Shown: one piece after another, positions 9,658 through 28,195 of the stretch
Position numbering within the stretch: the stretch's first letter is position 1
Layout of the letters: the number at the start of each line of letters is the position of its first letter
Origin: Myxococcus sp.
Lineage (GTDB): Bacteria > Myxococcota > Myxococcia > Myxococcales > Myxococcaceae
Length of the DNA stretch: 44,729 nt
Assembly: GCA_014879945.1 (NCBI GenBank)
Contig: JACSRE010000201.1
Coordinates: forward strand, 1 to 44,729
Reading direction: 5' to 3'
Translations under genes and position numbers: made by a program
Notes under the pieces: generated by a model
Databases searched by the model: none
The model's input: the letters and a program-made list of their open reading frames with translations, nothing else
Told to the model about the DNA's origin: nothing

Positions 9658-10455
9658 TCACCGCTGCAACATGGCCGAGCGCACCGGCGCTTCGTCCGCG
9701 GCGCCTGCGAGCACGGTCACCCGCCGCGACAGCACCAGGGTGCCAAGGCCTGAGACCCCGGGCGCGTCCTCCATCGTCTGCGAGCTGACCTCGACCGGCC
9801 CCTCGAGCGTCAGCGCCAGCGGGAGCGTGTCTGCGCGGCGCACCTCGAGCGAGCCGTACAGCGGCGCGCGGAGCGTCACCGCGCCCGCCCGGGTCACCGT
9901 CACCAGCGTGGCGGAGAACACGGCGACGGCGTCGGTCGCGGCCTGCAGGCGCAGGGAGGCGTGCTCCACCGAGACCGAAGGCCCGAGCGCCCGACGCGCC
10001 AGCGCCGCGAAGGCCGTGTCGAGGTGCGGGGCCGACTCGCGAAGGCGCAGCGGCCGCCGCAGCAGCGCGACCTGCAGCGCGTCCGGGCCGAGCGCGACCG
10101 CCGCAGCCGCGGTGGTGTCGCCTGCCTCGTCGCCGGAGAGCGGCGCGCCGTCGTCGAGCGCGCGGGCCTCGCCCCCCTCGACGCTGAAGCTGCGCCCCGC
10201 GAGCGAGGGGTGCTCGAGCCACCGCACCACCGACGCGCGCTCCCTCCACTCGACCCTCGCCCGCTGGCTGGCCTCGCTGTCGAGCGGCTGCTCGTCGACG
10301 TCTTCGCCGACGCCGATGGTGAGGTGCGCCGAGAGCCGGTGCCGGGTGGCGACCTCGACCGTGCCCGGCGGCGTTCCCAACGAGAAGGTCACCGGCGCTT
10401 CGGCGTGACAGGCGCCGAGCGCGAGGCTGATCAGCACGACGAAGGAGGCGCGCAT
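9658..10455 (-). CDS. Lipoprotein of unknown function
   Basis: The start at 10455 is chosen because it gives a classic lipoprotein signal (MRASFVVLISLALGAC, Cys16); the frame extends 62 codons upstream, but those residues are Arg/Pro-rich with no signal. The 265-residue product has a mostly beta, Val/Ala/Thr-rich mature part with no cysteines, and segments such as TVEVATRHRLSAHLTIGVGE and AVAVFSATLVTVTRAGAV that alternate hydrophobic residues like beta strands. I do not recognise the family. It is the first gene of a minus-strand set with RNase H and a secreted protein, though a shared role is not obvious. Confidence 0.75.
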   Translation of the reverse strand: MRASFVVLISLALGACHAEAPVTFSLGTPPGTVEVATRHRLSAHLTIGVGEDVDEQPLDSEASQRARVEWRERASVVRWLEHPSLAGRSFSVEGGEARALDDGAPLSGDEAGDTTAAAAVALGPDALQVALLRRPLRLRESAPHLDTAFAALARRALGPSVSVEHASLRLQAATDAVAVFSATLVTVTRAGAVTLRAPLYGSLEVRRADTLPLALTLEGPVEVSSQTMEDAPGVSGLGTLVLSRRVTVLAGAADEAPVRSAMLQR

Positions 10456-10507
10456 GCCACGCTCATCGCATGGGAAGCGTGAGGGCTCCCGAAAACAGCC
10501 GCGGTGA

Positions 10508-10660
10508 TGCAGGGCTGTAGCGCCGCGGAGCGGGTGCGGGGGTGCAGTGACGCGGAGCGGCCGCGGCGCGCTGATTCGCAGCGCCCTGCGGCGAGGCGCT
10601 GATCGGAGCGACCTTTGGCTGCGCGCTGCTTCGCAGGGCAACCTTCCGCCGCGGAGCAGG
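10508..10660. repeat. Block of imperfect GC-rich repeats with hairpins between two minus-strand genes
   Basis: CGCGGAGC recurs at 10524, 10551 and 10650. A 19-base motif (GCGCGCTGATTCGCAGCGC) near 10566-10584 recurs with two changes at 10621-10639. The first copy contains a perfect hairpin: GCGCTG at 10568-10573 pairs with CAGCGC at 10579-10584 around ATTCG. This 208-base gap has no credible gene and looks like a degenerate REP-like or terminator cluster downstream of the M50 gene. Confidence 0.5.
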
Positions 10661-10663
10661 CGC

Positions 10664-11599
10664 CTACGACGCGACGAAGCGCAGCGGCGTCGGCATGAAG
10701 GTCAGCACCGTCAGCACGAAGCACACCGCGCACACCACCTTGCGGCTCGTCGAGAGCGGCGTCGCCTCGTCCGCCACCGGCGGGTGCCTGAACTTCACCA
10801 CGAACGTCACCAGCAGGAACCAGACCAGCCACGTCGTCGAGAAGAGCAGCGCGGCGAGCGCGATGAGGGCCGCGACGGCCTTGCCCAGGGTGACGGCCCG
10901 CGCACCGAACCAGGCGTGGGTGAGGTGGCCGCCGTCGAGCTGCCCCACCGGCAACAGGTTCAACATCGTCACCAGGAAGCCGAACCACGAGGCCACCAGC
11001 ACCGGGTGCGCGAACAGGTCGGAGCCCGCGGGCAACGGGCCCTTCACCAGCCACTGCAGGCCCAGGCCCAACAGGTTGTCGCCGAACACCTGCACCACCT
11101 CACCCTCGGGGGCCGCGTCGCTCCAGTGGCCGAGCAGGTGCCACACCGAGAACTGCCCGGGGAAGGTGTCGCTGAAGCTCGGCGAGGGCGCCACCCGCGA
11201 CAGCCACACGCCCGCGCACCACAGCGGCACGCAGACCAACAACCCGGCCAGCGGGCCCGCCGCGCCGATGTCCACCAGCGCGTCGCGGGTGGGGATGCGG
11301 CCACGCAGCCGAATCACCGCGCCCATGGTGCCGAAGCCCAGGGGAATGGGGATGAACCAGGGCCAGCTGGAGTCCACGCCGTGGTGCCGCGCCATCAGGA
11401 AGTGGCCCATCTCGTGCGCGGTGAGGATGAGCATCACCGACAGCGAGAACCACGCGCTGCCCCACAGCTGGTCGGCCAACGCGCTGCTGTCGACGCCTCC
11501 GCCCGACTGGGTGAGGAAGGTGAAGAACGTGCTCAGGCAGGTGGCCACGAAGAGCACCGCGTGCAGCCAGAGCCGGTCTCTTCGGGGCGATTCACTCAC
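10664..11599 (-). CDS. Site-2 protease family (M50) intramembrane metalloprotease
   Basis: A 311-residue polytopic membrane protein with the zinc-protease motif HEMGH at 62-66 inside a membrane helix (VMLILTAHEMGHFLMARHHG) and the second metal-ligand motif LDGGH at 221-225 (Asp222). These define the M50 family, which cleaves transmembrane substrates such as anti-sigma factors. Other hydrophobic spans lie near 12-30, 107-132, 203-217, 236-266 and 285-303. No PDZ domain is evident, so this is the short form. It diverges from the small lipoprotein at 11755. A perfect-armed inverted repeat (11603-11635) sits just before the GTG start, so expression may be controlled there. The substrate is unknown; no sigma/anti-sigma pair is in the window. 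Confidence 0.93.
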   Translation of the reverse strand: MSESPRRDRLWLHAVLFVATCLSTFFTFLTQSGGGVDSSALADQLWGSAWFSLSVMLILTAHEMGHFLMARHHGVDSSWPWFIPIPLGFGTMGAVIRLRGRIPTRDALVDIGAAGPLAGLLVCVPLWCAGVWLSRVAPSPSFSDTFPGQFSVWHLLGHWSDAAPEGEVVQVFGDNLLGLGLQWLVKGPLPAGSDLFAHPVLVASWFGFLVTMLNLLPVGQLDGGHLTHAWFGARAVTLGKAVAALIALAALLFSTTWLVWFLLVTFVVKFRHPPVADEATPLSTSRKVVCAVCFVLTVLTFMPTPLRFVAS

Positions 11600-11602
11600 G
11601 GA

Positions 11603-11635
11603 GACAGGGTGTTGTGACGAACGTCACGCCCTGTC
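11603..11635. promoter_or_regulatory. Nested inverted repeat between divergent M50 and lipoprotein genes
   Basis: The outer arms GACAGGG (11603-11609) and CCCTGTC (11629-11635) are perfect complements. Inside them GTGACG (11614-11619) and CGTCAC (11622-11627) form a second perfect dyad around AA. The element ends 4 bases from the GTG of the M50 gene and begins 11 bases before the -35 hexamer proposed for the lipoprotein promoter. It could be an operator or an mRNA hairpin over the protease ribosome-binding region. Confidence 0.6.
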
Positions 11636-11645
11636 CAGTCTGTCG

Positions 11646-11673
11646 TTGACACGTCTCCGACTGCCGATAAGTT
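11646..11673 (+). promoter_or_regulatory. Putative sigma-70-type promoter of the small lipoprotein gene
   Basis: A perfect TTGACA (11646-11651) is followed after 16 bases by TAAGTT (11668-11673), which shares three of six positions with the -10 consensus. The -35 is part of a small dyad, TGTC-GTT-GACA (11641-11651). The predicted leader is about 75 bases and carries GAGGAG before the ATG at 11755. Confidence 0.45.
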
Positions 11674-11754
11674 CCGCGCGCTCGCTGGGAGGGGAAACGC
11701 CCTGGCAGGCAGTGAAGCAGTTCACCATCTTGGTTCACCTTGAGGAGTCCACAC

Positions 11755-12102
11755 ATGAAGAAGGCATTTCTTGCCCTGTCGCTCGCCGCTGCCGTCGGCT
11801 GCACGTCCGTTGAGTCGGCCACTGTCGCTGGCAACGAAGTCGTCGCCAACGGTGGCGAGGCTGTCGCGGTCATCCAGGCCAACAGCATCGGCATCACCCT
11901 CATCTTCCACATCATCGACATCGTGACGTCGGACCTCGACCAGGTCGTCAACAAGCTCCTCGTCGCGGAGGCCAAGGCCATGGGCGCGTCGAAGATCGAC
12001 CTCAAGGGCGCTGGCACCACCCCCCGCCACGGCATCTTCGCGCTCGCCGGCAACATCATCGGCATCACGAACTCCGGCGCGATGGGCATCGCGGTCAAGT
12101 AA
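11755..12102 (+). CDS. Small Ile-rich lipoprotein of unknown function
   Basis: A 115-residue lipoprotein: MKKAFLALSLAAAVGC gives an ideal signal and lipobox (Val-Gly-Cys16), and GAGGAG sits about 8 bases before the ATG. The mature part alternates a hydrophobic Ile-rich stretch (SIGITLIFHIIDIVTSDLDQ) with a helix (VVNKLLVAEAKAMGASKIDL) and a Gly-rich beta end. This is reminiscent of small sensor lipoproteins with a YbjQ/RcsF-like alpha/beta fold, but I cannot confirm that family. The Ile content is high for a genome this GC-rich. It has its own likely promoter and a hairpin after the stop, so it may be transcribed alone and strongly. Confidence 0.85.
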   Translation: MKKAFLALSLAAAVGCTSVESATVAGNEVVANGGEAVAVIQANSIGITLIFHIIDIVTSDLDQVVNKLLVAEAKAMGASKIDLKGAGTTPRHGIFALAGNIIGITNSGAMGIAVK

Positions 12103-12122
12103 GTCGGACCGCAGTGCAGTCT

Positions 12123-12163
12123 CGAAGGGCTCGGTGGCTCCGCGTGGAGTGCCGGGCCCTTCG
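12123..12163 (+). terminator. Likely terminator hairpin after the small lipoprotein gene
   Basis: CGAAGGGC (12123-12130) pairs perfectly with GCCCTTCG (12156-12163), and the enclosed sequence has an inner GGCTCC/GGAG pairing. It starts 20 bases after the stop and is followed by CATTTCT, a weak U-run. It ends 23 bases before the next lipoprotein start, so it may only attenuate transcription. Confidence 0.5.
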
Positions 12164-12186
12164 GCATTTCTGGAGGTCTGCGCACC

Positions 12187-12975
12187 ATGTCGCTGCGAAC
12201 GAGCTTGCTGCTGGGCCTGCTGTTGAGCGGCTGCCCGAGAGACGCCCCGAAGGCGCCCGAGAACCTGGCCTCCGAGGCGCGCCGGGCGCTGGCGGAGCGC
12301 GACCGGCGGTTGACGGCCTACCTCGTCGAGGCCGCCACCACGCAGGGCGACCAGACCGCCACCCACACCTTCGTGGCGCGCGCGCCCAACCGCGTGAAGG
12401 GCACCCTGCTGACGCCGCAGCAGGTGACGCTCTCGTTCGACGGCGCCCGCTTCTTCAAGCTGTCGGTGGCCGACAAGAAGCTCGAGGCCTTCGAGCTGAA
12501 GCTGCCGGCCGAGAAGGCGGCGCTCTTCCTCACCACCCAGTTCGCCCCCTTCGTGCCCGAGGGCTACCGCACGCCGCTGCTCCCCTCGAAGGGCGTCACC
12601 GCCACGAAGGTCGCGCACCCCAGAGGGCCCGAGGCGTTCGAGCTGGTGATGACGACGCCCGACGAGGCCGGCCAGCCCATCACCGTCACCTACCACCTGC
12701 GGTTTCCCTCGGGCGACTTCCTGGCGAAGACGACGAAGGCCGGGGCGCTGACGAGCGAGGTGGTGGTGGAGGCCGAGCACTGCGACGCCGCCCGCGCCCT
12801 GTGCGTGCCGAAGGTGGTGGTGCAGAAAGAGAACGGCGTCGAGCTGGGCCGCACCACCTTCACCCGCATCGAGCTGGCGCCCGAGGTGCCCAACGACACC
12901 TTCAGCCTGACGGCGCCCGAGGGGTACACCTTCGAGAAGCACGAGCTGGTCGAGTCGGGGGCCGACGGCCGGTGA
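12187..12975 (+). CDS. LolA-like lipoprotein
   Basis: A 262-residue lipoprotein (signal MSLRTSLLLGLLLSGC, Cys16; GGAGG upstream of the ATG). The body looks like the half-barrel fold of LolA/outer-membrane lipoprotein-sorting proteins: an N-terminal helix (LASEARRALAERDRRLTAYL), then many short beta strands with basic and aromatic ends such as NRVKGTLLTPQQVTLSFDGARFFKLS and ITVTYHLRFPSGDF. Assignment rests on this layout and is moderate. Members bind lipids or acyl groups in the periplasm. Two cysteines near 199 and 207 (HCDAARALC) could form a disulfide. The FHA gene begins 12 bases after its stop, with the ribosome-binding site overlapping the stop codon, so the two are one operon. Confidence 0.75.
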   Translation: MSLRTSLLLGLLLSGCPRDAPKAPENLASEARRALAERDRRLTAYLVEAATTQGDQTATHTFVARAPNRVKGTLLTPQQVTLSFDGARFFKLSVADKKLEAFELKLPAEKAALFLTTQFAPFVPEGYRTPLLPSKGVTATKVAHPRGPEAFELVMTTPDEAGQPITVTYHLRFPSGDFLAKTTKAGALTSEVVVEAEHCDAARALCVPKVVVQKENGVELGRTTFTRIELAPEVPNDTFSLTAPEGYTFEKHELVESGADGR

Positions 12976-12987
12976 GGAGCCCCGCGC

Positions 12988-13473
12988 GTGTTCACCGTTC
13001 GTGAGCTCAAGGAGCTGGCGCAGCGCCTCGACGCCGAGGCGTTCGAGCAGCAGCTGGGGCCCTTCGTGCTGGTGGAGCGCCCCTTCACCAGGGCGCGCGA
13101 GGTGGCGCCGAAGACGACGCGGCCGCTGACGGGCGGGCCACCGCGACGAGACGTGCTCGACTTCGACGACCTCTGGGTGGCGACGCTGCCTCCGCTGCGC
13201 GACGAAGACGAGTTCCTCATCGGGCGCACCGCCGACTGCGACGTGCTGCTCGACGAAGACACCGTCTCGAAGCACCACGCCCGCGTCACCTGGGCCCGGC
13301 GCCGCGCGCAGGTCGAGGACCTCGGCTCCAGCAACGGCACCAAAGTCAACGGCACCCGCTTGAGGGCCAACACCCCCCTCTCGCTCAAGGACAACGACGC
13401 CCTCGACTTCGGCGGGGTGCGGGTGCTGTTCCTGACGGTGTCGACGCTGCGCAAGCGCATGGGCCTGCGCTAG
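12988..13473 (+). CDS. FHA-domain protein
   Basis: A 161-residue cytoplasmic protein. The C-terminal half is a forkhead-associated domain, which binds phosphothreonine peptides: FLIGR (Gly79-Arg80), DTVSKHHARV (Ser94, His97) and EDLGSSNGTKVNG (Asn116) are the conserved binding residues, all intact. The N-terminal part (1-60) is helical and basic with no recognised domain. GTG start; TGAGGAG overlaps the stop codon of the upstream lipoprotein. No adjacent kinase is on this strand. The PEGA kinase at 1559 and the hybrid histidine kinase (convergent, 8 bases away) are the nearest signalling genes, and only a Ser/Thr kinase would be expected to create its ligand. Confidence 0.93.
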   Translation: MFTVRELKELAQRLDAEAFEQQLGPFVLVERPFTRAREVAPKTTRPLTGGPPRRDVLDFDDLWVATLPPLRDEDEFLIGRTADCDVLLDEDTVSKHHARVTWARRRAQVEDLGSSNGTKVNGTRLRANTPLSLKDNDALDFGGVRVLFLTVSTLRKRMGLR

Positions 13474-13481
13474 AGGCGCCC

Positions 13482-15371
13482 TCAGGCCACCGCGGCCTGA
13501 CCCATCGCCCGCGCCAGCAGGTCGAGGGTGAAGGGCTTCTGCAGGAAGGCCGCCTGGCCGCCCCCGACGCGCCGGGCGACGTCGGCCTCGGCGTGGCCGC
13601 TCATCAAGATGACGCGCACCTCGGGCCGCAGCCGGCGCAGGGCCTGGAGCGTCTGCGGCCCATCGAGCTGCGGCATCGTCACGTCGAGCAGCACCAGCCC
13701 GATGCGGGGCCCGTGCCGCTCGAAGAGCGCCAGCGCCTCGCGGCCGTCGGCGGCCACCAGCGTCGAGAGGCCGCACTCTTCGAGGAGCCGCGAGGTGCTG
13801 CTGCGCACCGACTCCTCGTCGTCCACCACCAGCACCGTGCCGCCTCCGGTGGGGAGCGGCAGCGGCGTCAACCTCGAGGTGATGGCGGCGCCCTCGGCGG
13901 CGGGGAGGTACACCTTGAAGGTGGTGCCAACCCCGACGGCGCTCTCCACCGTCAAGACGCCGCCGTGCCCGCGAATGATGCCCAGCGTCGCCGCCAGCCC
14001 GAGGCCGCGGCCGGTGAACTTGGTGGTGAAGAAGGGCTCGAACATGCGCTCGCGCACCTCGTCGCTCATGCCGCAGCCGTCGTCGGCCACCGTCACGCAC
14101 ACGAAGGGGCCCTCGAGCACGTCGGGGGCGCACCGCGCGCGCGTGAGGTCGATGGCCGCGCCCTCCACCACCGCGGTGGTGACGCGCACCACGCCGTCGC
14201 GCTCACCGACGGCCTCCGAGGCGTTCATCACCAGGTTCATCACCACCTGCTGCACCTGCGTGCGGTCGGCGCGCACCAGCGGCAGGAGCGCGCCGCCCGA
14301 CACCTTGAGCGCCACGCGCTTCGAGACCGTCGCCCGCAGCAGCTCGGAGGAGTCGCGCACCAACTGGTCGAGGTCGAGCGCCTGCAGCACCGTCGGGCCC
14401 TTGCCCGCGTAGGCCAGCATCTGCGCGCACAGCTCGGCCGCGCGCAGGGTCGCGGCCTCGATCTGGTCCAGGTTGGCCTCGAGGGTCGCGTCGACGCGGC
14501 GCTCGAGCCGCGCCAGGTTCGCGGTGTTCAAGATGATGGCGAGCAGGTTGTTGAAGTCGTGCGCGATGCCGCCCGCGAGAATGCCCAGGCTCTCGAGCCG
14601 CTGGGCCTGGTGGAGCCGCCGCTCCACCTCGAGCCGCTCCGCAACCGCCTGGTTGAGCGCGGTGACGTCGCGGGCCACGCTCAGCACCGACTCGATTCGG
14701 CCGTCGGGCCCCCGCTCCGGCACCACGCGCGAGACGAAGCTGCGAACGCCCGAGGGCGTGGGGAAGTCGAACGCCTTCTTGCCCTCCTGGCCCGTCTCGA
14801 AGACGTGGCGGTAGGTGGCCTGCCAGCTGTGGATCAGCTCCTCGGGCATGCCGAGCTCGCGGTGGTCCTTCCCGATGAAGTGGGCGGCCGTGGCGCCGGT
14901 CGCCTCGACGATGGCGCGGTTGACGTAGAGGTGGCGGAAGTCGCGGTCGAGCCGCGCGATGATGTCGGGCGAGTTCTCGGCGATGGACTCGAACTGCCTC
15001 AGCCGCCGCTGCAGCTCGGCGTCATCGGCCCGCTCCTCGAGCACCGTCAGGCTCAGCCCGCCGGGGCACGGCGCCGCCAGCACCCGGCACCAGCGGGCCT
15101 CGGCGGCGAACGTCAGCCACAGGCGCTCGTCGAGGCGCTCGCCCGTCGCCCCGCACTGCTCCAGCCTCGGCGCCAGCACGCTCGCCGCGGCAGCGCCCAC
15201 CAGGGCCTCGAGCGTCTCGGGCGCACCGGGGCCCGCGGCCAGGCGGTCGAAGGCCGCGCTCCGCGCGACGACCCGAAAGCGCCCCTCGCCGACGGGCGAG
15301 AGGTGGGCGACGGGGAAGGGAAGGTGCGCGAGCACCGCCGGGCTCGAGACCCGGTCTGCGGGGGAAGGCAT
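13482..15371 (-). CDS. Hybrid sensor histidine kinase with PAS and receiver domains
   Basis: The start at 15371 is chosen for the GGAG about 9 bases upstream. The 629-residue product has an N-terminal PAS-like region (about 10-115), a PAS domain (about 122-245, DIIARLDRDFRHLYVNRAIV), and a HisKA dimerisation helix with the phospho-His271 in GGIAHDFNNLLA. A GHKL ATPase domain (about 365-490) has an N-box at 383 (VMNASEAVGE), a G1 box at 430 (DDGCGM) and a G2 region FTGRGLGLA. A C-terminal receiver (about 511-629) has the acidic pair in VVDDEE, phospho-Asp563 in LLDVTMP and Lys612 in QKPF. There are no membrane spans, so it is a cytoplasmic sensor. The HDFNN type is typical of phosphorelay hybrids. 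No partner with an output domain lies beside it. Confidence 0.95.
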   Translation of the reverse strand: MPSPADRVSSPAVLAHLPFPVAHLSPVGEGRFRVVARSAAFDRLAAGPGAPETLEALVGAAAASVLAPRLEQCGATGERLDERLWLTFAAEARWCRVLAAPCPGGLSLTVLEERADDAELQRRLRQFESIAENSPDIIARLDRDFRHLYVNRAIVEATGATAAHFIGKDHRELGMPEELIHSWQATYRHVFETGQEGKKAFDFPTPSGVRSFVSRVVPERGPDGRIESVLSVARDVTALNQAVAERLEVERRLHQAQRLESLGILAGGIAHDFNNLLAIILNTANLARLERRVDATLEANLDQIEAATLRAAELCAQMLAYAGKGPTVLQALDLDQLVRDSSELLRATVSKRVALKVSGGALLPLVRADRTQVQQVVMNLVMNASEAVGERDGVVRVTTAVVEGAAIDLTRARCAPDVLEGPFVCVTVADDGCGMSDEVRERMFEPFFTTKFTGRGLGLAATLGIIRGHGGVLTVESAVGVGTTFKVYLPAAEGAAITSRLTPLPLPTGGGTVLVVDDEESVRSSTSRLLEECGLSTLVAADGREALALFERHGPRIGLVLLDVTMPQLDGPQTLQALRRLRPEVRVILMSGHAEADVARRVGGGQAAFLQKPFTLDLLARAMGQAAVA

Positions 15372-15450
15372 CGAAGGACTCCGGGCCGCGCGGCGCACGC
15401 GACGCGCGCACCCTATCGGAGCCCGCGCGCCCAACGCCAGCGTCGGCCGG

Positions 15451-16497
15451 TCAGGTCTTCATGCGCAGCCGGTGCTCGTGCACGCCCTCGGGCGGGGCCT
15501 CCCCGGCGGCGGCCTGCTTGAGGAGCCTCGTCACCTGCGGACCGAGCACGTCGAGCTCCGTCGAGGTGTAGCGCGCGCCGCCGAAGCGCTGCAGCTGGGC
15601 CGTCTGCCGCCGCAGCATCACCGCGTCCTGCGCGAAGATGCTCGTCGCGATGGGGGCCACGAAGGGCTTCACCAGCCACGCGGGCACCGGCAGCTTGAAC
15701 GTCACCACCGCGAACACCCGCGTCTCGGTGTCCGTCACCGGCGTCAACGCGCTGGTGGCCAGCAGGTGGCTGGTGGCGCCCAGCCGGTACTCCACCTGCG
15801 CGATGGACGGCAGGAGGAAGCGGTCGGTGTGCTCGGTGACGCCGCCGCCCGGCGCGAGCAGGCGGCCCACCAGGCCCCTGGGCGCCGGCTCTCCGATGAA
15901 CTCGGCCTCGGCGAAGGTGCCGTGGCGGCGCACCACCACGTCGATGACGTTCGACTTCTGCGCGGTGCGAAACAGCCCGCCGTGCAGGTACGCGGTGTGC
16001 GGCACGTCGAGGGTGTTCTCGACCACCGCGTGCACCGAGGCCTCGACGTGAAACTCGCGCACCACGCTCGAGTAGGGCGCCTCGCCGAGGTGGGGGAACG
16101 AGAAGGGCGGGTGCGTGGGCGCCTGGTTCGGCGTGCTGTACACCCAGACGAAGCCCTGCTGCTCCACGCACGCGAAGGCCTCGGCGCACCGCGACCTCAG
16201 CGACACCTCGCCGTCCACCAACCCGGGCACCGCCGTGCACTGCCCCGCCGCGTCGAAGCGCCACCCGTGGTAGCGGCACTGCAGCTCGCCTCCCACCACC
16301 GTGCCCATCGAGAGCGGCACGTTGCGGTGCGGGCAGCGGTCGGTGAAGGCCGCCGGCGCGCCGCCCGCTCCCCGAAACACCACCAGCGGCCGCCCCTGAA
16401 TCGTCACCGCCAGCGGCGCCGCCCGTAACGTCTTCGAGCGACACGCCACGTACCAGACGTCAGGCAACACCATTCCGGCCGGAGGCACCGCGCTCAT
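15451..16497 (-). CDS. Rieske non-heme iron oxygenase (alpha subunit-like)
   Basis: A 348-residue protein. The N-terminal Rieske [2Fe-2S] domain has the ligand set C55-P-H57 and C74-R-Y-H77 (RCPHRN ... CRYHGW). The C-terminal catalytic domain has the mononuclear iron motif NTLDVPHTAYLH at 161-172 with His167 and His172, and a likely third ligand Asp291 (FAQDAVML). These match ring-hydroxylating, O-demethylating and related oxygenases; the substrate cannot be read from the sequence. No ferredoxin or reductase gene is nearby, so electrons must come from a distant partner. Start chosen at the ATG for MSAVPPAG. It lies 79 bases upstream of the histidine kinase on the same strand. Confidence 0.93.
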   Translation of the reverse strand: MSAVPPAGMVLPDVWYVACRSKTLRAAPLAVTIQGRPLVVFRGAGGAPAAFTDRCPHRNVPLSMGTVVGGELQCRYHGWRFDAAGQCTAVPGLVDGEVSLRSRCAEAFACVEQQGFVWVYSTPNQAPTHPPFSFPHLGEAPYSSVVREFHVEASVHAVVENTLDVPHTAYLHGGLFRTAQKSNVIDVVVRRHGTFAEAEFIGEPAPRGLVGRLLAPGGGVTEHTDRFLLPSIAQVEYRLGATSHLLATSALTPVTDTETRVFAVVTFKLPVPAWLVKPFVAPIATSIFAQDAVMLRRQTAQLQRFGGARYTSTELDVLGPQVTRLLKQAAAGEAPPEGVHEHRLRMKT

Positions 16498-16636
16498 GCC
16501 AGCACTGTAGCAACCCACGCCGCCGAGGCCCGGTCGGTGATGATCCGCCCGCGCCGGACAATTCTACAGGGAACGAAGCGGACCCCAGCCGTCCGAGGTG
16601 GCTGCTACACAATCGCTGCGCGTGGGGGTTCAACCG

Positions 16637-17143
16637 ATGAATGAGACGGACAACAGGCCAATCGTCGTCTACGTCGAAGACGACCCCGACACGTTCAAGA
16701 TCGCCGCGCTCCGCCTCAAGGCGAAGTACCGGCTGGTGTGGGCGCAGAACGACCTCGAGGCCATCGACCTGCTCGACCACCACCGCGACCACCTGCACGC
16801 GGTGCTGATGGACATCGAGCTGCGCGGCTCGACGCTCGACGGGCTCGACCTGGTGCGCGTGCTCCGCGGCGCGGGCCTGCGGCGGCCGCTGCCCGACTTC
16901 GCCAGGCGCCTCAAGCCGCTCCCGCACGTGCCCATCATCGTGTTGACGGCCTACACGGCGCGCTACTCCGAGAGCGACGCCCGCGCGGTGGGCGCCACCC
17001 ACTTCGCCACCAAGCCCATCGACTTCACGCGCCTCAACCTCGCGCTCGCGCAGGCGAACATCGCCGCGGTGATGAAGCGCCTCGAGCGGCCCGTGGAGCG
17101 CCCGACGCCCCCGACCCAGCCCCCCCCGGCCGAGCTGGGCTGA
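16637..17143 (+). CDS. Stand-alone response regulator receiver protein
   Basis: A 168-residue single receiver domain with no DNA-binding output. The acidic cluster Glu14-Asp15-Asp16 (VEDDPDT), phospho-acceptor Asp59 (VLMDIELRG), Thr104 (VLTAYTA) and Lys126 (ATKPID) are all present. An insertion of about 20 residues after the phosphorylation site (GLRRPLPDFARRLKPLP) and a Pro-rich tail (about 150-168) are unusual. The start at 16637 is preferred because GGGGGTT lies 7 bases upstream; an in-frame GTG at 16598 is an alternative. It precedes the chemoreceptor gene by 78 bases and diverges from the Rieske gene. It probably relays a signal to another protein. Confidence 0.9.
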   Translation: MNETDNRPIVVYVEDDPDTFKIAALRLKAKYRLVWAQNDLEAIDLLDHHRDHLHAVLMDIELRGSTLDGLDLVRVLRGAGLRRPLPDFARRLKPLPHVPIIVLTAYTARYSESDARAVGATHFATKPIDFTRLNLALAQANIAAVMKRLERPVERPTPPTQPPPAELG

Positions 17144-21301: not shown

Positions 21302-22321
21302 TCAGGCCTTCACGCGCTCGACGATGCTGTCGATGAGCTTCGCCGACGTCAGCCCCTCGGACTCGGCGGTGAAGTTGGGCAGCACGCGGTGGCGCAGCAC
21401 GGGCCGGGCGAGCGCGCGCACGTCGTCCACCGACGCCACGAAGCGCCCCGACAGCACCGCCCGGGCCTTGGCGCCGATGACGAGGTACTGGCTCGCGCGC
21501 GGGCCTGCGCCCCACGACACGTTGCGGCTGACGAAGTCGAAGGCGCCGGGCTCCCTGGGGCGGGTCGCGCGCACCAGGTCGACCGCGTACTTCACCACGT
21601 GGTCGGGCACCGGCACCCGGCGCACCAGGTCCTGCAGGTCGAGGATCTCTTGCGGCGAGAGCACCTTGCTCAAGGTGGCCGTCTGGCCGCCCGTCGTCTG
21701 CTTGACGATGCGCACCTCTTCTTCGGCCGAGGGGTAGCCGACGTCGACGTAGAACATGAAGCGGTCGAGCTGCGCCTCGGGCAGCGGGTAGGTGCCCTCC
21801 TGCTCGATGGGGTTCTGGGTCGCGAAGACGAGGAAGGGCGGCTCGAGGTGCCAGGTGCGGCCCGAGGCGGTGACGCGGTACTCCTGCATCGCCTGCAGCA
21901 GCGCGGCCTGCGTCTTGGGCGGCGTGCGGTTCACCTCATCGGCCAGCACGATGTTGGCGAAGATGGGCCCCTTCATGAAGCGCAGCTCGCGCCGGCCCGT
22001 GGCGCGGTCTTCTTCGAGGATGTCGGTGCCGGTGATGTCGCTGGGCATCAGGTCGGGCGTGAACTGCACCCGGTTGAACGAGAGCGTCAGCACCTCGGCC
22101 AGCGTCGAGATGAGCAACGTCTTGGCCAGGCCCGGCACCCCGACGAAGAGGCAGTGACCGCGCGAGAAGAGCGCGATGAGCAGGTGGTCGACGACGTCCT
22201 TCTGGCCGACGACGCGCTTGTCGATCTGCTCCAGCACCGCCGCGCGGGCCCGCGCCAGCGCCTCTACGGCCTTCAGGTCATCTGCACTGCCGGTTCCGGG
22301 TCCGCCTGCGGTGTCACTCAT
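21302..22321 (-). CDS. MoxR-family AAA+ ATPase
   Basis: A 339-residue ATPase with Walker A GVPGLAKT (61-68), Walker B IVLADE (124-129) and the MoxR signatures [18 protein letters not shown] and [21 protein letters not shown]. MoxR proteins act as chaperones, usually beside DUF58 and von Willebrand A-domain genes. Here those partners are absent: the downstream side is the convergent Nudix gene and the upstream neighbour, 36 bases away on the same strand, is the giant modular lipoprotein. Co-transcription with it is likely. No Shine-Dalgarno is evident before the ATG. Confidence 0.94.
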
Positions 22322-22357: not shown

Positions 22358-25300
22358 TCACTGCACGAACGTCAGGGCGAACAGGCTGAACGTCGAGTTG
22401 TTGCCGCCGCCCTGCGCGCCGCGGGTGAGCACGATGCGGGTGTTGGAGGCGCTGCGGTTGTAGCTGATGCGGGCCTGGGTGTACCCGGGCGTGGCGGACG
22501 TCACGCTCGTCTCACCGCCACACTGCCCGCCGGGCCCTTGACCCGAGACGAAGCTCCACACCCGGTCGAGCGCCAGCGTCTGGCTGCCGATGTTCTGGTT
22601 GCCGCTGTCGGTGGTGTTGCCGTTGATGGTGACCGCCGGGAGCGCCTGAATCGACGCGAGCGTGTTCGGCACCGCGGGCCGCTCCCACGAGATGCCGCTG
22701 ACGGTGGCGTTGTTGCAGTTCGACGACGTGCCCAGCGCGCGGCTGAACGTCAAGACGGTGTCGCTCGTCACTACGCTCCGCAGCCTGAACTTGCACATCT
22801 CGCCGCCCGACTCGGCGCTGAAGCGCGTCGAGTGGAGCACGAAGCCATCGCGCGACGCGCCCGGCGCCATGGTGCTCGCCGTACCGCTGAGGCTCGTGGC
22901 CATGGAGAAGGTCGAGACGCCGCGCTCGACCACCACGCCGGGCAGCTGAACGACCTGGGCTGAGTAGTGGACCGTCGTCGGCCAGCTGATGCTCTTGAGC
23001 ACCACGGTCGTCGTGCTGCCGAGCTCTGCGGTCGAGTTGTCGTCGGCGCCGAAGTTCGTGCCCGACGTCGCCGCGTTGTAGAGCACGAACGCAGCCCCCA
23101 TCGAGGGCACGGCCTCACTCAGCGTCAGCGTCTGGTCTCCCGAGGCACCCGAGAGCGTTCCACTCAGCGGCAGCACGACGGCGTCTGCAACCGTGACGAG
23201 CTGCCAGCTGATGTTGACGACCCCGCTGGTGCCGACGCGCTGACAGGTGATGGCCGTCGGCGTCGGTGCGTCGAGCACACACTGAACCGTGACGTCCGAG
23301 GGCGCCGTGGGGGCCGCGGCGGTGACGGCTTGCACGGTGAAGAACGACTGTCGGCTCGCGCCGCTCGGGAGCGCCGGCGACACCGTGCACGGCGTCATGC
23401 TCGTCGCCGTGGACGAGTCGGTGTTCTGGATGGTGCAGGTGCCGCGGCGAACCGCCGGATGAATGCTGATGCTCGCGCTCGTCCCCGCGTCGAAGAAGCC
23501 CGCGGCGTCGGTGGCGATGGCCGTCATCGTGCGCAGCGTGCCGGCCGAGCTGTTGTCGCCCGCGCCCGTGGGCTCTGCGCTGCGGCCCCGCAGGTAGACC
23601 GTCGCCGTCGCGCTCCCTGAGCCGATGACGACACCAGGCAGCGTCGCGGCGCCGACGTCGCTGCAGTCGCTCAGGGTGTGCAGCGAGTAGGCGGTGGCCG
23701 GCGGTGCGCCTCCCACCGTCACGTTCACCGTCGTCGTCAGCGTCGTGAAGTCGACGCCGCCAACGGTGCGGCGGAGCGTGACGGGTGTACACGTTCGGTA
23801 CAGCAGGTCGGTCGCGGCCGGCGTCGCGGAGAGCACCGCTGGCGTCGCTCCCGCGACGGTGACGGTCGCGCTCGGGGTGGCCGTGAGCGGCATGCCGGTG
23901 GTGTCGGTGGCGATGGCCGAGAACGCGCCGTTGGCGAACGACAGCGCGTAGAGGTCAGGCGACTCCGACTGACCTGCCGCGATCTCGAAGGCGCCCGTCA
24001 CCGCCGTCGTGCAGGCCGCGTCGGTGAAGAAGCGGAAGCCGGTCGCGGCGAGGGGCGCGAAAGACAGGGGCCTCGCGACGCTGGTTGTCACCGCAACGTC
24101 GGCTGCGTCGGCGACCTCGACCCGAAACGCGCTGCTGCAGGTGAAGCGGGTGAGCATCGAGGGAGGCGCCGCCCCCACCTTCCAACGGAGCTTCGCGGGC
24201 CCGTTGGCTTCGATGTTCCAGCTCTGCACCGCCGAGGGCGCGGTGCCCACCGTCAAGCTGATGGCCGGGCCAGGAACGGGGTTGCGCAGGTAGAAGCTGG
24301 CCGTCGTCGCGGTGCCGGCCACCAACTGAGTGAGGCTGCCGCTGCTACAGCCGGCCGCGGACCAGAACGTGGCGTTCGCCATCGAGAGCGCCAACGTGCC
24401 GAGCGCGGCGGGGTTGCCCTGGTCGTCGACTCCGTTCACCGTGACGATGGGGCTGCACACGTTCGCGCCCAGCGACGCCGGCGGCGTGGTGGAGAACGAG
24501 AGCCCGAAGAGGGCGCCCGCCACCACGGTGGTGCTGGTGTCGGCCGGCGCGGTGAGCGGCGCGCTCGAGGTGGCCAGCGTCAACGCGCCCGCCTTGCGCA
24601 CCCGCACGCTGAAGGTGGCCGACGACGCCCCCGCCATGATGTCGATTGACGCCGGGTTCGCCTGGGCGGCGCCGCCGCAGCCTGCGCCGAGGTAGACCTG
24701 CGCCTCGTTGCTGGCCATCGCGGCGGCGCCCGAGAGCGTCACCTGCACCGTGCGCTGCGCGCCGACGGCGTCGTTGCCGCCCGAGTCGACGCGGCGCACC
24801 GTGAAGTCCACGCAGGTTCCCGCGGTGGTCATCGGCGCGAAGCCGGTGCGCTGGAGGCCTGCTTCAGGGCCCGCGGCCACGTTGAACATCGCGGTGCCCG
24901 ACATGCCCGTCGAGGGCGTCGCCGTGAGCGTCGCCGCGCCCAGCGCGCCCGGCTGATAGCGGAACGTCACCGTCGCGCTCGCCGGCACCGTCACCGAGTT
25001 CGTCATGCCCGAGAGGCAGTCGGTCGAGGTGAAGAAGGCGCCCGTCGCCGAGGAGCTCACCATCACGTTGGTGGGCGTGGTGACGGGGTTGTTGCCGACG
25101 TCGAGCGCCTCGAGCGTCAGCGGCACGCAGCCTCCGTAGGGCTGGTCCATCGTCGGCGGCGACACGAAGCGCACCCGCGCCACCGCGCCCGCGCCCACCG
25201 TGGTGGACCCCATGGCGGAAGCCAGGCCCGTGCTCGTCACGGCGAAGCTCAGCGCCCCGGTGGCCCGCGGCTCGTACGAGAACGTCGTGGTCGTCGCCGT

Positions 25301-28195
25301 GCCGAACGAGAGGCCGACCGACGACTGCATGGTGGAGCCACACGCCGAGGTGGAGTTGGCCAACACCAGGCCCATGCCGCCGGCCCCCGAGGCCGTCACC
25401 GTCGCCGCCAGGTTGGTCGGCAGCGTGGTGAGGTTGCCCTCGACGTCGCGGCGCTCCACGGTGGCCTGCGCGCAGGCCCCGACGGCCGAGGTCGCGGGCG
25501 GGCTGCCCGTGGCGAAGCGCAGCTCGGTCGCGGCGCTCGCCAGCACCTGCACGTTGGTCGTCGTCACCATCGCCGGCGCGGCGGTGACGGTGAAGGCCGT
25601 GGTGCCCGCAGCCCGCCCCCTCACGAAGAACGCGCTCCGGGTCTCACCGGCGAGGAAGCCGAGCGCCGGGCCCGCGCCGCCGCTCGCGCACGACGCCATG
25701 TCGCCGTGCACCGTCGCGGTGCCCACCGAGGTCGCGCTCACCGAGTAGGCCTGGGCCGCCCCCGGGCTCGGGTTCATGAAGGCGTCGAGGCGCTCGACCT
25801 GCACCGGGGTGCAGCTGCCCGCCGCCAACATCGACGAGGGCTGCGTCGCCACCCGGAGCACCGACGGCGCGCCCGCGTCGACGGTGAAGGTCGCCGCCGT
25901 GGTGGTGGACGACGAGAGGCCCGTCGCCGAGATGCTGTACTGCTGCGCCCGCTGGGCCTTGGCGAAGAACGTCACCCCGCCGTCGGCCATCATGAAGGTG
26001 GTGGTGGCGGCGCTGCAGTTCGACGCCGCCGAGAACGCCACGCCCGCCGGCAGCGCCACGCTCGGTGCGGCAGCCGGGGTGATGACGCCGTTGGCGAAGG
26101 TGGGGTTGTCGAAGGTGTCGAAGGCCAGCAGGCCCAGGCCTCCGCTGCAGCCGTCGGCGACGGCCGAGACCGAGGTGGGCGGTTGGAAGACGAGCTTGCT
26201 GGTGGGCGCCGGGGTGACGCGCGCGCTCTGCGGCGGCGACGTCGTCGACAGGTTGGTGGCGCTCGCGCTGAGGGTGAGGCTCCGCGCCGTGTTGCTGCGG
26301 AAGTAGAACGTCACCTCGCTGCTGCCCGCGGGCAGCGTCACCTGGTTGGTGGCCAGCAACGTGGTGCAGCTCGAGTCGAGGTAGAGCGCGGCCGACCCCG
26401 CGGGGCTGGGGCTCAAGGAGACGACGACGGGCGCGACGACCGGCGAGACCGGCGACGTCGTCGAGTTCGTCTCGCGCGTCTGGAGGCGGATGCCGGGCGA
26501 GCAGGTGCCGGCGCCGGTCGACACCACCACCGCCGGGGTGGGGAACACCAGGGCCGTCGGGTCCATGGTGCCGACGTCCACCTGCAGCTGCGTGGCCGGG
26601 CCGGGGAGCGCGCTGGCCGTCGCGGTGACGCCGTAGGTGCCCGGGCCCGCGGCGCGCAGGTAGACGCCCACCCGCGACTGGTTGGCGGGAATGGTGATGG
26701 CGGTGACGGCGCCGCCGGCGCACCCGGCCGCTGCGAAGAACTGGAGCGCCCCCCCGGCCGCGGGTGGCGTGAAGGCGAGCGTGACGTCGACGCCCGCAGG
26801 CCCGGCGGTGGTGACGTTGCCGTTGACGTCGAAGAGCTCGACCTCGGCCATCACCTGGCTGCACACGTTGTTGCGCAGGCCCAGGGCGGCGGCGGTGAAC
26901 TCGATGCGGTTGGCCGCCCCGGCGGTGATGGTGAGCGCGAGCGCTGCGGGCGCGCCGCCGTTGACGGTGGGCGAGCTGACCTGAACGGTGATGGGCATAC
27001 CGGGCGGCGTGGCGCGGCTGCCGCGCAGGTACAGCCGGGTCGACGAGGTGCCCGCGGGGATGGGGGGCGCGCCCGGCGTGGTGCAGCTGGGGTCGCTGAA
27101 CAGCTCGACCGAGCTGGTGCCCGCGGGCAGGAAGCCAACGGCCAGCGGCAGGCCCGACGACGACACGTTGGTGGGCATCATGCGGTCGTCGACGGCGGTG
27201 ACGTCGATGGCGCTCGAGCAGGCGCCGGCGCGGGCCGACAACGAGGTCGGCGTGAGGGCGAGGCTGGCGACCGGGCGGTCGGTGATGGTGGTGTCGAGCG
27301 AGGTGGAGCCGAGGCCCGGGGCGGTGGCGGTGAGGCTGAGGGCTCCCGGGGTCGTCGCGCGGAACGAGAAGGCCACGCGGGTGGTGCCGAAGCCCAGCCG
27401 CAGCGTGGCGCCGCTGAGGGGCGTGGCGCAGGCGGTGTCAGAGAAGAGCTGGAGCCCGGCGGACGCGGTGCCGGTGGGGACGAGCGTCACCGCGGTGTCG
27501 GCGGACACGGCGGCCGGCATGCCGCCCGCCACGCTCTGCACGGAGAGGGGCCCGGAGCAGTCGCGAGCCACCAACGTGGGCAGCTGGGACTCGTAGACGA
27601 GGCCGGTGGCAGGCGAGAGGCAGGTCGCCGTCTGCGCGCAGGTGGAGTCGGCGCAGAAGAGCTTCCCATCGCAGTTGGTGTCCACGCTCGAGGCGCAGTC
27701 CTGGGGCACGCCCGGCTTCACCGCGGCGTTGGTGTCGTCGCAGTCGGTGCCGCCCTTCTGCACGTCGACGAAGGTGTCGCGGTCGCCGTCGAGGGTGGCG
27801 TCGGGCTGGCCGATGGTGAGCGCGAAGGACTCGACGCCCGAGGCGGGGAACGCCCTGGTCACTTCGGGGGACCTCGACGAGAGCTTCCAGGTGGCGTCGT
27901 CGCCGCAGCGGCCTTGCACGGCCGAGGCCTGCCACGTCATCGACGCGGGGAAGTCGCCGCGGCTGATGCCGGCGAAGTACTCGGTGCGGGCGGCGTCTCT
28001 TGCGACGGCTGAGCGCACGCGGCGGCGCCCGTCTTCGAAGCCCTCGACGACCACGCAGTCGCCGCGCACGCCGGCCTCGAGCGTGACGGTGAGCAACAGA
28101 CCGCCTTCGGTCTTCGCGGGGCACCCGCTGAGCACCGACCCGAAGACGACGGCGACGACGAGGCTGCGGAGCACCAGCGGCGGAGGTCGGATCAT
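22358..28195 (-). CDS. Giant modular surface lipoprotein with 12 Ig-like Cys-pair modules
   Basis: A 1945-residue lipoprotein (MIRPPPLVLRSLVVAVVFGS then VLSGC; Cys25). A first domain (about 26-130) has beta character. Residues 134-192 resemble MopE-type calcium/metal segments: TLDGDRDTFVDVQKGGTDCD followed by DTNAAVKPG and five more Cys. From about 203 to 1581 I count twelve modules of 100-130 residues. Each starts near a Cys (AGTCSPxxVxxxD-xGN), continues through a beta core, has a second Cys about 45-60 residues later, and ends FYxR...G...LTATA; the pair probably forms a disulfide in an Ig-like domain. From about 1582 a different repeat occurs four times, diverged. The form suggests a long surface fibre or adhesin. 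Ligand unknown. No SD is obvious. Confidence 0.9.
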   Translation of the reverse strand: MIRPPPLVLRSLVVAVVFGSVLSGCPAKTEGGLLLTVTLEAGVRGDCVVVEGFEDGRRRVRSAVARDAARTEYFAGISRGDFPASMTWQASAVQGRCGDDATWKLSSRSPEVTRAFPASGVESFALTIGQPDATLDGDRDTFVDVQKGGTDCDDTNAAVKPGVPQDCASSVDTNCDGKLFCADSTCAQTATCLSPATGLVYESQLPTLVARDCSGPLSVQSVAGGMPAAVSADTAVTLVPTGTASAGLQLFSDTACATPLSGATLRLGFGTTRVAFSFRATTPGALSLTATAPGLGSTSLDTTITDRPVASLALTPTSLSARAGACSSAIDVTAVDDRMMPTNVSSSGLPLAVGFLPAGTSSVELFSDPSCTTPGAPPIPAGTSSTRLYLRGSRATPPGMPITVQVSSPTVNGGAPAALALTITAGAANRIEFTAAALGLRNNVCSQVMAEVELFDVNGNVTTAGPAGVDVTLAFTPPAAGGALQFFAAAGCAGGAVTAITIPANQSRVGVYLRAAGPGTYGVTATASALPGPATQLQVDVGTMDPTALVFPTPAVVVSTGAGTCSPGIRLQTRETNSTTSPVSPVVAPVVVSLSPSPAGSAALYLDSSCTTLLATNQVTLPAGSSEVTFYFRSNTARSLTLSASATNLSTTSPPQSARVTPAPTSKLVFQPPTSVSAVADGCSGGLGLLAFDTFDNPTFANGVITPAAAPSVALPAGVAFSAASNCSAATTTFMMADGGVTFFAKAQRAQQYSISATGLSSSTTTAATFTVDAGAPSVLRVATQPSSMLAAGSCTPVQVERLDAFMNPSPGAAQAYSVSATSVGTATVHGDMASCASGGAGPALGFLAGETRSAFFVRGRAAGTTAFTVTAAPAMVTTTNVQVLASAATELRFATGSPPATSAVGACAQATVERRDVEGNLTTLPTNLAATVTASGAGGMGLVLANSTSACGSTMQSSVGLSFGTATTTTFSYEPRATGALSFAVTSTGLASAMGSTTVGAGAVARVRFVSPPTMDQPYGGCVPLTLEALDVGNNPVTTPTNVMVSSSATGAFFTSTDCLSGMTNSVTVPASATVTFRYQPGALGAATLTATPSTGMSGTAMFNVAAGPEAGLQRTGFAPMTTAGTCVDFTVRRVDSGGNDAVGAQRTVQVTLSGAAAMASNEAQVYLGAGCGGAAQANPASIDIMAGASSATFSVRVRKAGALTLATSSAPLTAPADTSTTVVAGALFGLSFSTTPPASLGANVCSPIVTVNGVDDQGNPAALGTLALSMANATFWSAAGCSSGSLTQLVAGTATTASFYLRNPVPGPAISLTVGTAPSAVQSWNIEANGPAKLRWKVGAAPPSMLTRFTCSSAFRVEVADAADVAVTTSVARPLSFAPLAATGFRFFTDAACTTAVTGAFEIAAGQSESPDLYALSFANGAFSAIATDTTGMPLTATPSATVTVAGATPAVLSATPAATDLLYRTCTPVTLRRTVGGVDFTTLTTTVNVTVGGAPPATAYSLHTLSDCSDVGAATLPGVVIGSGSATATVYLRGRSAEPTGAGDNSSAGTLRTMTAIATDAAGFFDAGTSASISIHPAVRRGTCTIQNTDSSTATSMTPCTVSPALPSGASRQSFFTVQAVTAAAPTAPSDVTVQCVLDAPTPTAITCQRVGTSGVVNISWQLVTVADAVVLPLSGTLSGASGDQTLTLSEAVPSMGAAFVLYNAATSGTNFGADDNSTAELGSTTTVVLKSISWPTTVHYSAQVVQLPGVVVERGVSTFSMATSLSGTASTMAPGASRDGFVLHSTRFSAESGGEMCKFRLRSVVTSDTVLTFSRALGTSSNCNNATVSGISWERPAVPNTLASIQALPAVTINGNTTDSGNQNIGSQTLALDRVWSFVSGQGPGGQCGGETSVTSATPGYTQARISYNRSASNTRIVLTRGAQGGGNNSTFSLFALTFVQ

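What the first reader, a model, noticed from the sequence alone, without database searches (positions are those of the whole stretch)
23458..27600. Twelve-module Ig-like surface lipoprotein, each module with a spaced Cys pair
The giant protein carries twelve diverged copies of one module (about 100-130 residues). Each has a Cys near its start and another 45-60 residues later, in a shared pattern: Cys-Ser/Thr-Pro, an Asp with Gly-Asn, a Phe/Ala-rich beta core, the second Cys, then a Phe-Tyr-x-Arg strand. The diverged copies imply old duplication with selection on the Cys pair, and may form a rigid disulfide-stabilised fibre. I do not recognise the module from known adhesin families.
Basis: partly seen in the sequence, partly recalled or inferred. 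Interest (0 to 1): 0.6.

Follow-up and report, generated by a model that had tools for sequence, protein, structure and literature searches.

The report
Disulfide-stapled Ig stalk of myxobacterial lipoprotein
A soil bacterium of the family Myxococcaceae encodes a lipid-anchored protein whose long stalk is made of twelve immunoglobulin-like beads, each apparently stapled by its own disulfide bond and ending in a previously unnamed beta-rich tip; it is a new variant of a familiar sort of bacterial surface fibre, and the same bead is common across the family.

Summary
One 1945-residue predicted lipoprotein (window 22358-28195, minus) carries exactly twelve modules, each with two cysteines 36-47 residues apart (not 45-60). 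Leave-one-out profiles detect every module. Modules keep 1:1 orthology in order in related genomes, so the duplications are old.

The module is an Ig-like fold remotely related to the Big_1/Invasin_D3 domains of intimin and invasin. The window's own modules match no Pfam family, but some sister modules reach Invasin_D3 and the profiles align (shuffled controls do not). True Big_1 relatives sampled from the same phylum are cysteine-free; here the Cys pair is the strongest signature: of 304 modules, 298 have two Cys, 5 none, 1 three, none one. The two Cys columns are the most strongly coupled pair. A disulfide is very likely, but its distance could not be measured.

Best explanation: an outer-membrane fibrillar protein holding a binding tip away from the cell on a disulfide-stiffened stalk. 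Surface exposure, disulfides and ligand are inferred.

The parts
22358..28195 (-). Whole gene: 1945-aa predicted lipoprotein (P0001)
   Evidence: GC3 0.95; orthologues at 40-61% identity in same-genus genomes
28121..28195 (-). Signal peptide with lipobox L-S-G-C (Cys25); mature +2 is Pro and +7 is Gly, so neither the IM (+2 Lys) nor the ECM (+7 Ala) pattern described for M. xanthus lipoproteins
   Evidence: sequence; sorting patterns from PMC3222651; no signal-peptide program was run
27791..28120 (-). N-terminal domain of about 110 aa with Cys47/Cys97, shared by the long homologues
27662..27745 (-). Asp-rich, Cys-containing putative metal-binding motif (MopE type), residues 151-178
   Evidence: PF11617 E 1e-4, 22.9 bits, just under the cut-off 27; homologues over the cut-off
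27287..27625 (-). Cys-Ig module 1 (C213/C256)
26930..27286 (-). Cys-Ig module 2 (C326/C371)
26570..26929 (-). Cys-Ig module 3 (C445/C492)
26216..26569 (-). Cys-Ig module 4 (C565/C610); the modelled one (pLDDT 84, pTM 0.76)
25880..26215 (-). Cys-Ig module 5 (C683/C727)
25541..25879 (-). Cys-Ig module 6 (C795/C836)
25196..25540 (-). Cys-Ig module 7 (C908/C952)
24881..25195 (-). Cys-Ig module 8 (C1023/C1060)
24524..24880 (-). Cys-Ig module 9 (C1128/C1173)
24206..24523 (-). Cys-Ig module 10 (C1247/C1283)
23858..24205 (-). Cys-Ig module 11 (C1353/C1395)
23456..23857 (-). Cys-Ig module 12 (C1469/C1511), the most diverged
   Evidence: (21 bits)
22361..23470 (-). C-terminal four-repeat all-beta domain (putative tip), a family of its own present after the modules in many homologues (the stretch modelled; its first few residues overlap the end of module 12 as cut here)
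21302..22321 (-). MoxR-type AAA_3 ATPase, 36 bp downstream on the same strand; same neighbour in all five other same-genus genomes that hold the gene
   Evidence: PF07726 E 1.3e-60

Best explanation
A predicted outer-membrane lipoprotein that works as a fibrillar surface protein, probably an adhesin. Its lipidated N-terminus and a metal-motif domain anchor it. Twelve Big_1/Invasin_D3-like Ig modules form a stalk of roughly 40-50 nm (inferred from about 4 nm per module). One intramodular disulfide in each module ties the start of strand B to the loop after strand D, so the stalk resists force, unfolding and proteolysis outside the cell. The C-terminal four-repeat beta domain sits at the far end and binds a ligand, perhaps a glycan on prey, matrix or sister cells. 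Shown here: modules, Cys pairing parity and coupling, relation to Big_1/Invasin_D3, constant base-stalk-tip architecture. Inferred: disulfide formation, outer-membrane surface location, stalk rigidity, binding role of the tip.
For: Twelve modules above shuffles. Ig-like model pLDDT 84; VIA-align Z 8.4 to C-terminal domains of GH2 enzymes and Z 6.8 to intimin D0-D1. 21 of 105 modules hit Invasin_D3 (best 8e-8) and 13 hit Big_1; one homologue with 16 Cys-modules passes the Invasin_D3 cut-off. hhalign probability 87 against true Big_1/Invasin_D3 domains, 0.2 or less against reversed or shuffled controls. Cys count per module: 298 two, 5 none, 1 three, none one; where the first Cys is lost while the second stays, another Cys appears a few residues before the second. 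The two Cys columns are the top-coupled pair of 4851. The model's only isolated beta bridges, residues 20 and 69, lie beside the two Cys (21, 66). Lipobox without +2 Lys (PMC3222651). Same base + n Cys-Ig (up to 16 full modules) + C-terminal domain in many homologues. C-terminal model pLDDT 90.5, pTM 0.92, four internal repeats, nearest folds PCSK9 C-terminal domain Z 8.0 and H-type lectin domain of discoidin Z 3.4-3.7. Long proteins with covalently stabilised tandem stalks are typical of fibrillar adhesins (PMC12617251).
Against: No experiment, and no coordinates to measure the S-S distance. The coupling of the two Cys columns rests on only eight exceptional modules and on shared ancestry. 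Surface exposure of myxobacterial lipoproteins cannot be told from sequence; the protein could face the periplasm. No known adhesive domain is recognised by sequence in the tip; H-type lectin PF09458 does not match, and the structural match to it is weak. The constant MoxR neighbour in this genus is unexplained by an adhesin.
Confidence: 0.6

Rival explanations
1. It is a periplasmic or envelope-spanning structural lipoprotein: the Ig rod and the beta domain scaffold or sense something inside the envelope, and the adjacent MoxR ATPase acts on it or its partners.
For: MoxR follows the gene 36 bp downstream on the same strand in this genome and directly in five other same-genus genomes, with 92-96% identity of the ATPase. 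The oxidising periplasm alone would explain the disulfides.
Against: MoxR ATPases are cytoplasmic (general knowledge); the homologues in other genera have no such MoxR in the fetched surroundings, so it is not part of the core design. A stalk of up to 16 modules would be longer than a usual periplasm is wide.
Confidence: 0.2
2. It is a secreted or matrix-borne lipoprotein that works in the extracellular matrix or on vesicles (for example polysaccharide cross-linking) rather than as a cell-bound adhesin.
For: M. xanthus exports lipoproteins to the matrix (PMC3222651); the four-repeat tip could be multivalent.
Against: Residue +7 is Gly here, not the Ala found in most matrix lipoproteins, though that rule comes from few proteins of another genus.
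Confidence: 0.12
3. The Cys are not a disulfide but ligate a metal or a cofactor, or stay free.
For: Cys spacing is too long to judge by motif; a metal motif lies elsewhere in the same protein.
Against: Two Cys per module only, with no conserved His or third Cys beside them; an even number of Cys is kept in 303 of 304 modules; the protein is exported.
Confidence: 0.05

Closest known systems
Big_1 (PF02369) and Invasin_D3 (PF09134) Ig-like domains of intimin, invasin and related stalks
   Same: Ig-like fold of about 100 aa in tandem, D-x-x-G-N motif after strand B, aromatic strand E; remote but collinear profile match.
   Different: Two near-invariant Cys absent from the sixteen true Big_1/Invasin_D3 domains sampled; an extra loop around the second Cys; lipid anchor at the N-terminus instead of an outer-membrane beta-barrel; window modules match no Pfam family.
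Fibrillar adhesins with covalently stabilised stalks (isopeptide CLIPPER/DUF11, Cna-type; PMC12617251)
   Same: Long surface-type protein: anchor, tandem beta-sandwich stalk, terminal domain; one covalent lock per module.
   Different: Lock is a predicted disulfide rather than a Lys-Asn isopeptide bond; fold of the Big_1 type, not CnaA/CnaB; tip is an unnamed family.
PCSK9 C-terminal domain / apicomplexan APC-beta / H-type lectin domain of discoidin (for the C-terminal part)
   Same: Array of small all-beta units packed together; VIA-align Z 8.0, 3.5-3.8 and 3.4-3.7.
   Different: Four repeats instead of three subdomains; no sequence match; ligand unknown.

Membership tests
Big_1 / Invasin_D3 Ig-like domain | Sequence match over the family's curated cut-off by the window's modules | tested here: not met
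   No hit to the window protein; homologue L036 reaches 33.7 bits against the Invasin_D3 cut-off of 33; 21 of 105 modules match Invasin_D3 at E 1 or better.
Big_1 / Invasin_D3 Ig-like domain | Collinear profile similarity to true members | tested here: met
   hhalign probability 87, E 4e-6 over 70 columns; controls 0.2 or less; the twelve window modules alone give only 30.
Big_1 / Invasin_D3 Ig-like domain | Ig-like fold like intimin and invasin domains | tested here: met
   Model pLDDT 84; Z 6.8 (93 residues, 3.2 A) to intimin D0-D1, Z 8.4 to GH2 C-terminal domain. Z under 8 alone can be a common arrangement, so this rests on the profiles too.
Inverse autotransporter (intimin/invasin) | N-terminal outer-membrane beta-barrel | tested here: not met
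   No barrel family in Pfam; N-terminus is a lipobox plus a MopE-type motif.
Bacterial lipoprotein | Signal peptide with lipobox Cys | tested here: met
   Hydrophobic stretch then LSGC at 22-25 by eye, Cys conserved in orthologues; no prediction program run.
Fibrillar adhesin | Anchor + repetitive stalk + terminal domain in a long protein | tested here: met
   Architecture recurs in homologues.
Fibrillar adhesin | Surface exposure and demonstrated or recognised adhesive domain | not testable with these tools
   Tip family has no Pfam, NCBIfam or PDB sequence match.
H-type lectin (PF09458) for the C-terminal repeats | Sequence match to PF09458 | tested here: not met
   None of 24 domains or 19 single repeats; own genome has no match.
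H-type lectin (PF09458) for the C-terminal repeats | Six-stranded H-type lectin fold | tested here: inconclusive
   Discoidin I/II H-type domain at Z 3.4-3.7 over 78-85 residues.
Intramolecular disulfide-stabilised module | Cys pair lost and kept together, close in space | tested here: inconclusive
   Parity and top coupling met; distance not measurable because no coordinates are given; isolated bridges flank both Cys.

The most novel reading that the evidence does not exclude
Myxobacteria evolved their own large class of disulfide-locked Big_1-type stalks, a counterpart to isopeptide-locked stalks elsewhere, topped by a new four-repeat H-lectin-like or PCSK9-like binding head used for recognition of prey or kin, with array length tuned by tandem duplication.
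Probability: 0.3. Interest if true: 0.7.

Novelty: new variant of a known kind. Interest (0 to 1): 0.47.

Why it matters
The module is widespread in Myxococcaceae (85 of 96 genomes by my count, up to 116 matches in one genome) yet has no entry of its own in the Pfam or NCBIfam copies searched, and neither has the C-terminal head. [quoted passage not shown] This gives a defined disulfide case, with a natural length series (2 to 16 full modules) to test stalk mechanics, and a candidate recognition head in contact-dependent social bacteria.

Tried and rejected
Pfam, NCBIfam, PHROGs and PDB sequence searches with the whole protein gave nothing for the modules. PDB search with the module and tip profiles gave chance hits or none. 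Foldseek on the module gave no match at E 0.001 or better, so the second look and the profiles carry the argument. Foldseek's first rows for the module (cystinosin) were taken as beta-sandwich look-alikes and not followed. The module was not found in plasmid, phage or viral-contig collections by tblastn or pattern. Orthology of module 12 could not be scored because its profile match is partial. The BFVD search of the tip gave low TM-scores and is not used. Whether the module lies outside Myxococcota was not tested: the one genome-contig scan found only a same-genus record. dN/dS was not attempted, since GC3 near 0.95 leaves synonymous sites unreliable. PKD and beta-helix hits come from a single member each. 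Paper searches for this module or a myxobacterial Ig adhesin found nothing describing it.

Full report
Observation. The finding lies in one gene, window 22358-28195 minus, 1945 aa. Module identity averages 23%; leave-one-out profiles recover every module at 21-61 bits against at most 13.4 bits for shuffles. The two Cys are the only invariant columns. The window belongs to a 7.7-Mb draft genome; a same-genus orthologue lies in a record titled Myxococcaceae bacterium (MAG).

Age and history. Orthologues with twelve modules occur in four other same-genus genomes, and modules 1-11 match 1:1 in order at 34-76% identity in three of them and largely in order in the fourth, while modules within such a protein share 23-25%. 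A further genome of the genus has fifteen modules and shows the series 6, 7, 8, 6, 7, 8: a tandem duplication of three modules. Some other genera carry much more homogeneous arrays (mean 45-49% in L035 and L036). The duplications in the window's protein are therefore old, and array length still changes elsewhere.

What the module is. The window protein alone hits only the MopE-type metal motif with any significance. With 105 modules from the window and relatives, 21 members hit Invasin_D3 (best 8e-8) and 13 hit Big_1, and one homologue with sixteen Cys modules passes the Invasin_D3 cut-off. The AlphaFold2 model of module 4 is all-beta with pLDDT 84 and pTM 0.76; VIA-align gives Z 8.4 to C-terminal domains of GH2 enzymes and Z 6.8 to intimin D0-D1. 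A profile of sixteen true Big_1/Invasin_D3 domains from the same phylum, none with a Cys, aligns with probability 87; reversed and column-shuffled controls give 0.2 or less. The module is thus a remote, cysteine-bearing branch of this Ig-like group.

The Cys pair. In 304 modules from 40 loci and the window protein, 298 have two Cys, five none and one three; none has one. In three modules the first Cys column is empty while the second is kept; in each a further Cys lies a few residues before the second, and in two of these (L034 and L041, from different families) it is five columns before it. Mean-field coupling analysis (effective number 264) ranks the two Cys columns first among 4851 pairs, and other top pairs look like strand pairings. 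The caveat is that this rests on eight exceptional modules. The model's two isolated bridge residues flank the two Cys. I read this as one intramodular disulfide tying the start of strand B to the loop after strand D, a different place from the B-F disulfide of antibody domains (general knowledge). The distance itself could not be measured.

The rest of the protein. The N-terminus has a lipobox with Cys25; +2 is Pro and +7 is Gly, which fits neither the inner-membrane nor the matrix pattern reported for M. xanthus (PMC3222651), leaving the outer membrane as default. Residues 151-178 are a MopE-type motif. After the modules comes a C-terminal domain that many homologues share (tails of about 345-390 aa), whether they have two modules or sixteen. 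It has no Pfam, NCBIfam or PDB sequence relative of note, occurs in 19 of 146 sampled genomes of the phylum, and is predicted at pLDDT 90.5, pTM 0.92. Profiles show four internal repeats (repeat 2 against 4: probability 96; other pairs 40-82). Nearest solved folds are the PCSK9 C-terminal domain (Z 8.0, 193 residues, 4.7 A), the apicomplexan APC-beta domain (Z 3.5-3.8), and the H-type lectin domain of discoidin (Z 3.4-3.7). A lectin-like head is a reasonable lead, not a result. Short paralogues with two modules and the same tip lie in the same genome (L043, L044).

Surroundings and distribution. A MoxR-type ATPase follows 36 bp downstream on the same strand, and directly downstream in all five other same-genus genomes with the gene, but not in the fetched surroundings of other genera. 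The module occurs in 111 of 195 genomes of the phylum; by my count of that table, in 85 of 96 of the window's family and 26 of 99 others. One genome has 116 matches. It was not found in the plasmid, phage and viral collections searched.

Verdict. I file it as a new variant of a known kind.

Noticed in passing
window 22361-23470 minus: C-terminal ~370 aa: an unnamed four-repeat all-beta domain family with six invariant or nearly invariant Cys, confidently modelled, nearest to the PCSK9 C-terminal domain.
   Followed up: partly
window 21302-22321 minus: MoxR AAA_3 ATPase directly downstream in all same-genus genomes that hold the gene; no obvious vWA or DUF58 partner beside it in the window.
   Followed up: partly
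L028 (G001:C209) 10048-16995 plus: Fifteen-module orthologue with a tandem duplication of modules 6-7-8, up to 83% identity between copies.
   Followed up: partly
G014 (several contigs): A same-family genome of 6 Mb with 116 Cys-Ig module matches in many genes: an unusual expansion.
   Followed up: no
L034 (residues 982-1084 of the ORF) and L041 (residues 1505-1606 of the ORF): First Cys lost and a new Cys five columns before the second, in two different families: apparent relocation of the disulfide partner.
   Followed up: partly
G115:C2:10004215-10005303: A copy of the C-terminal domain family with stops inside, probably a pseudogene.
   Followed up: no
L040, L053, L060, L066, L069: A second architecture: large, in part neighbouring ORFs with TIG-like and other Ig-like stretches followed by Cys-Ig modules.
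   Followed up: no
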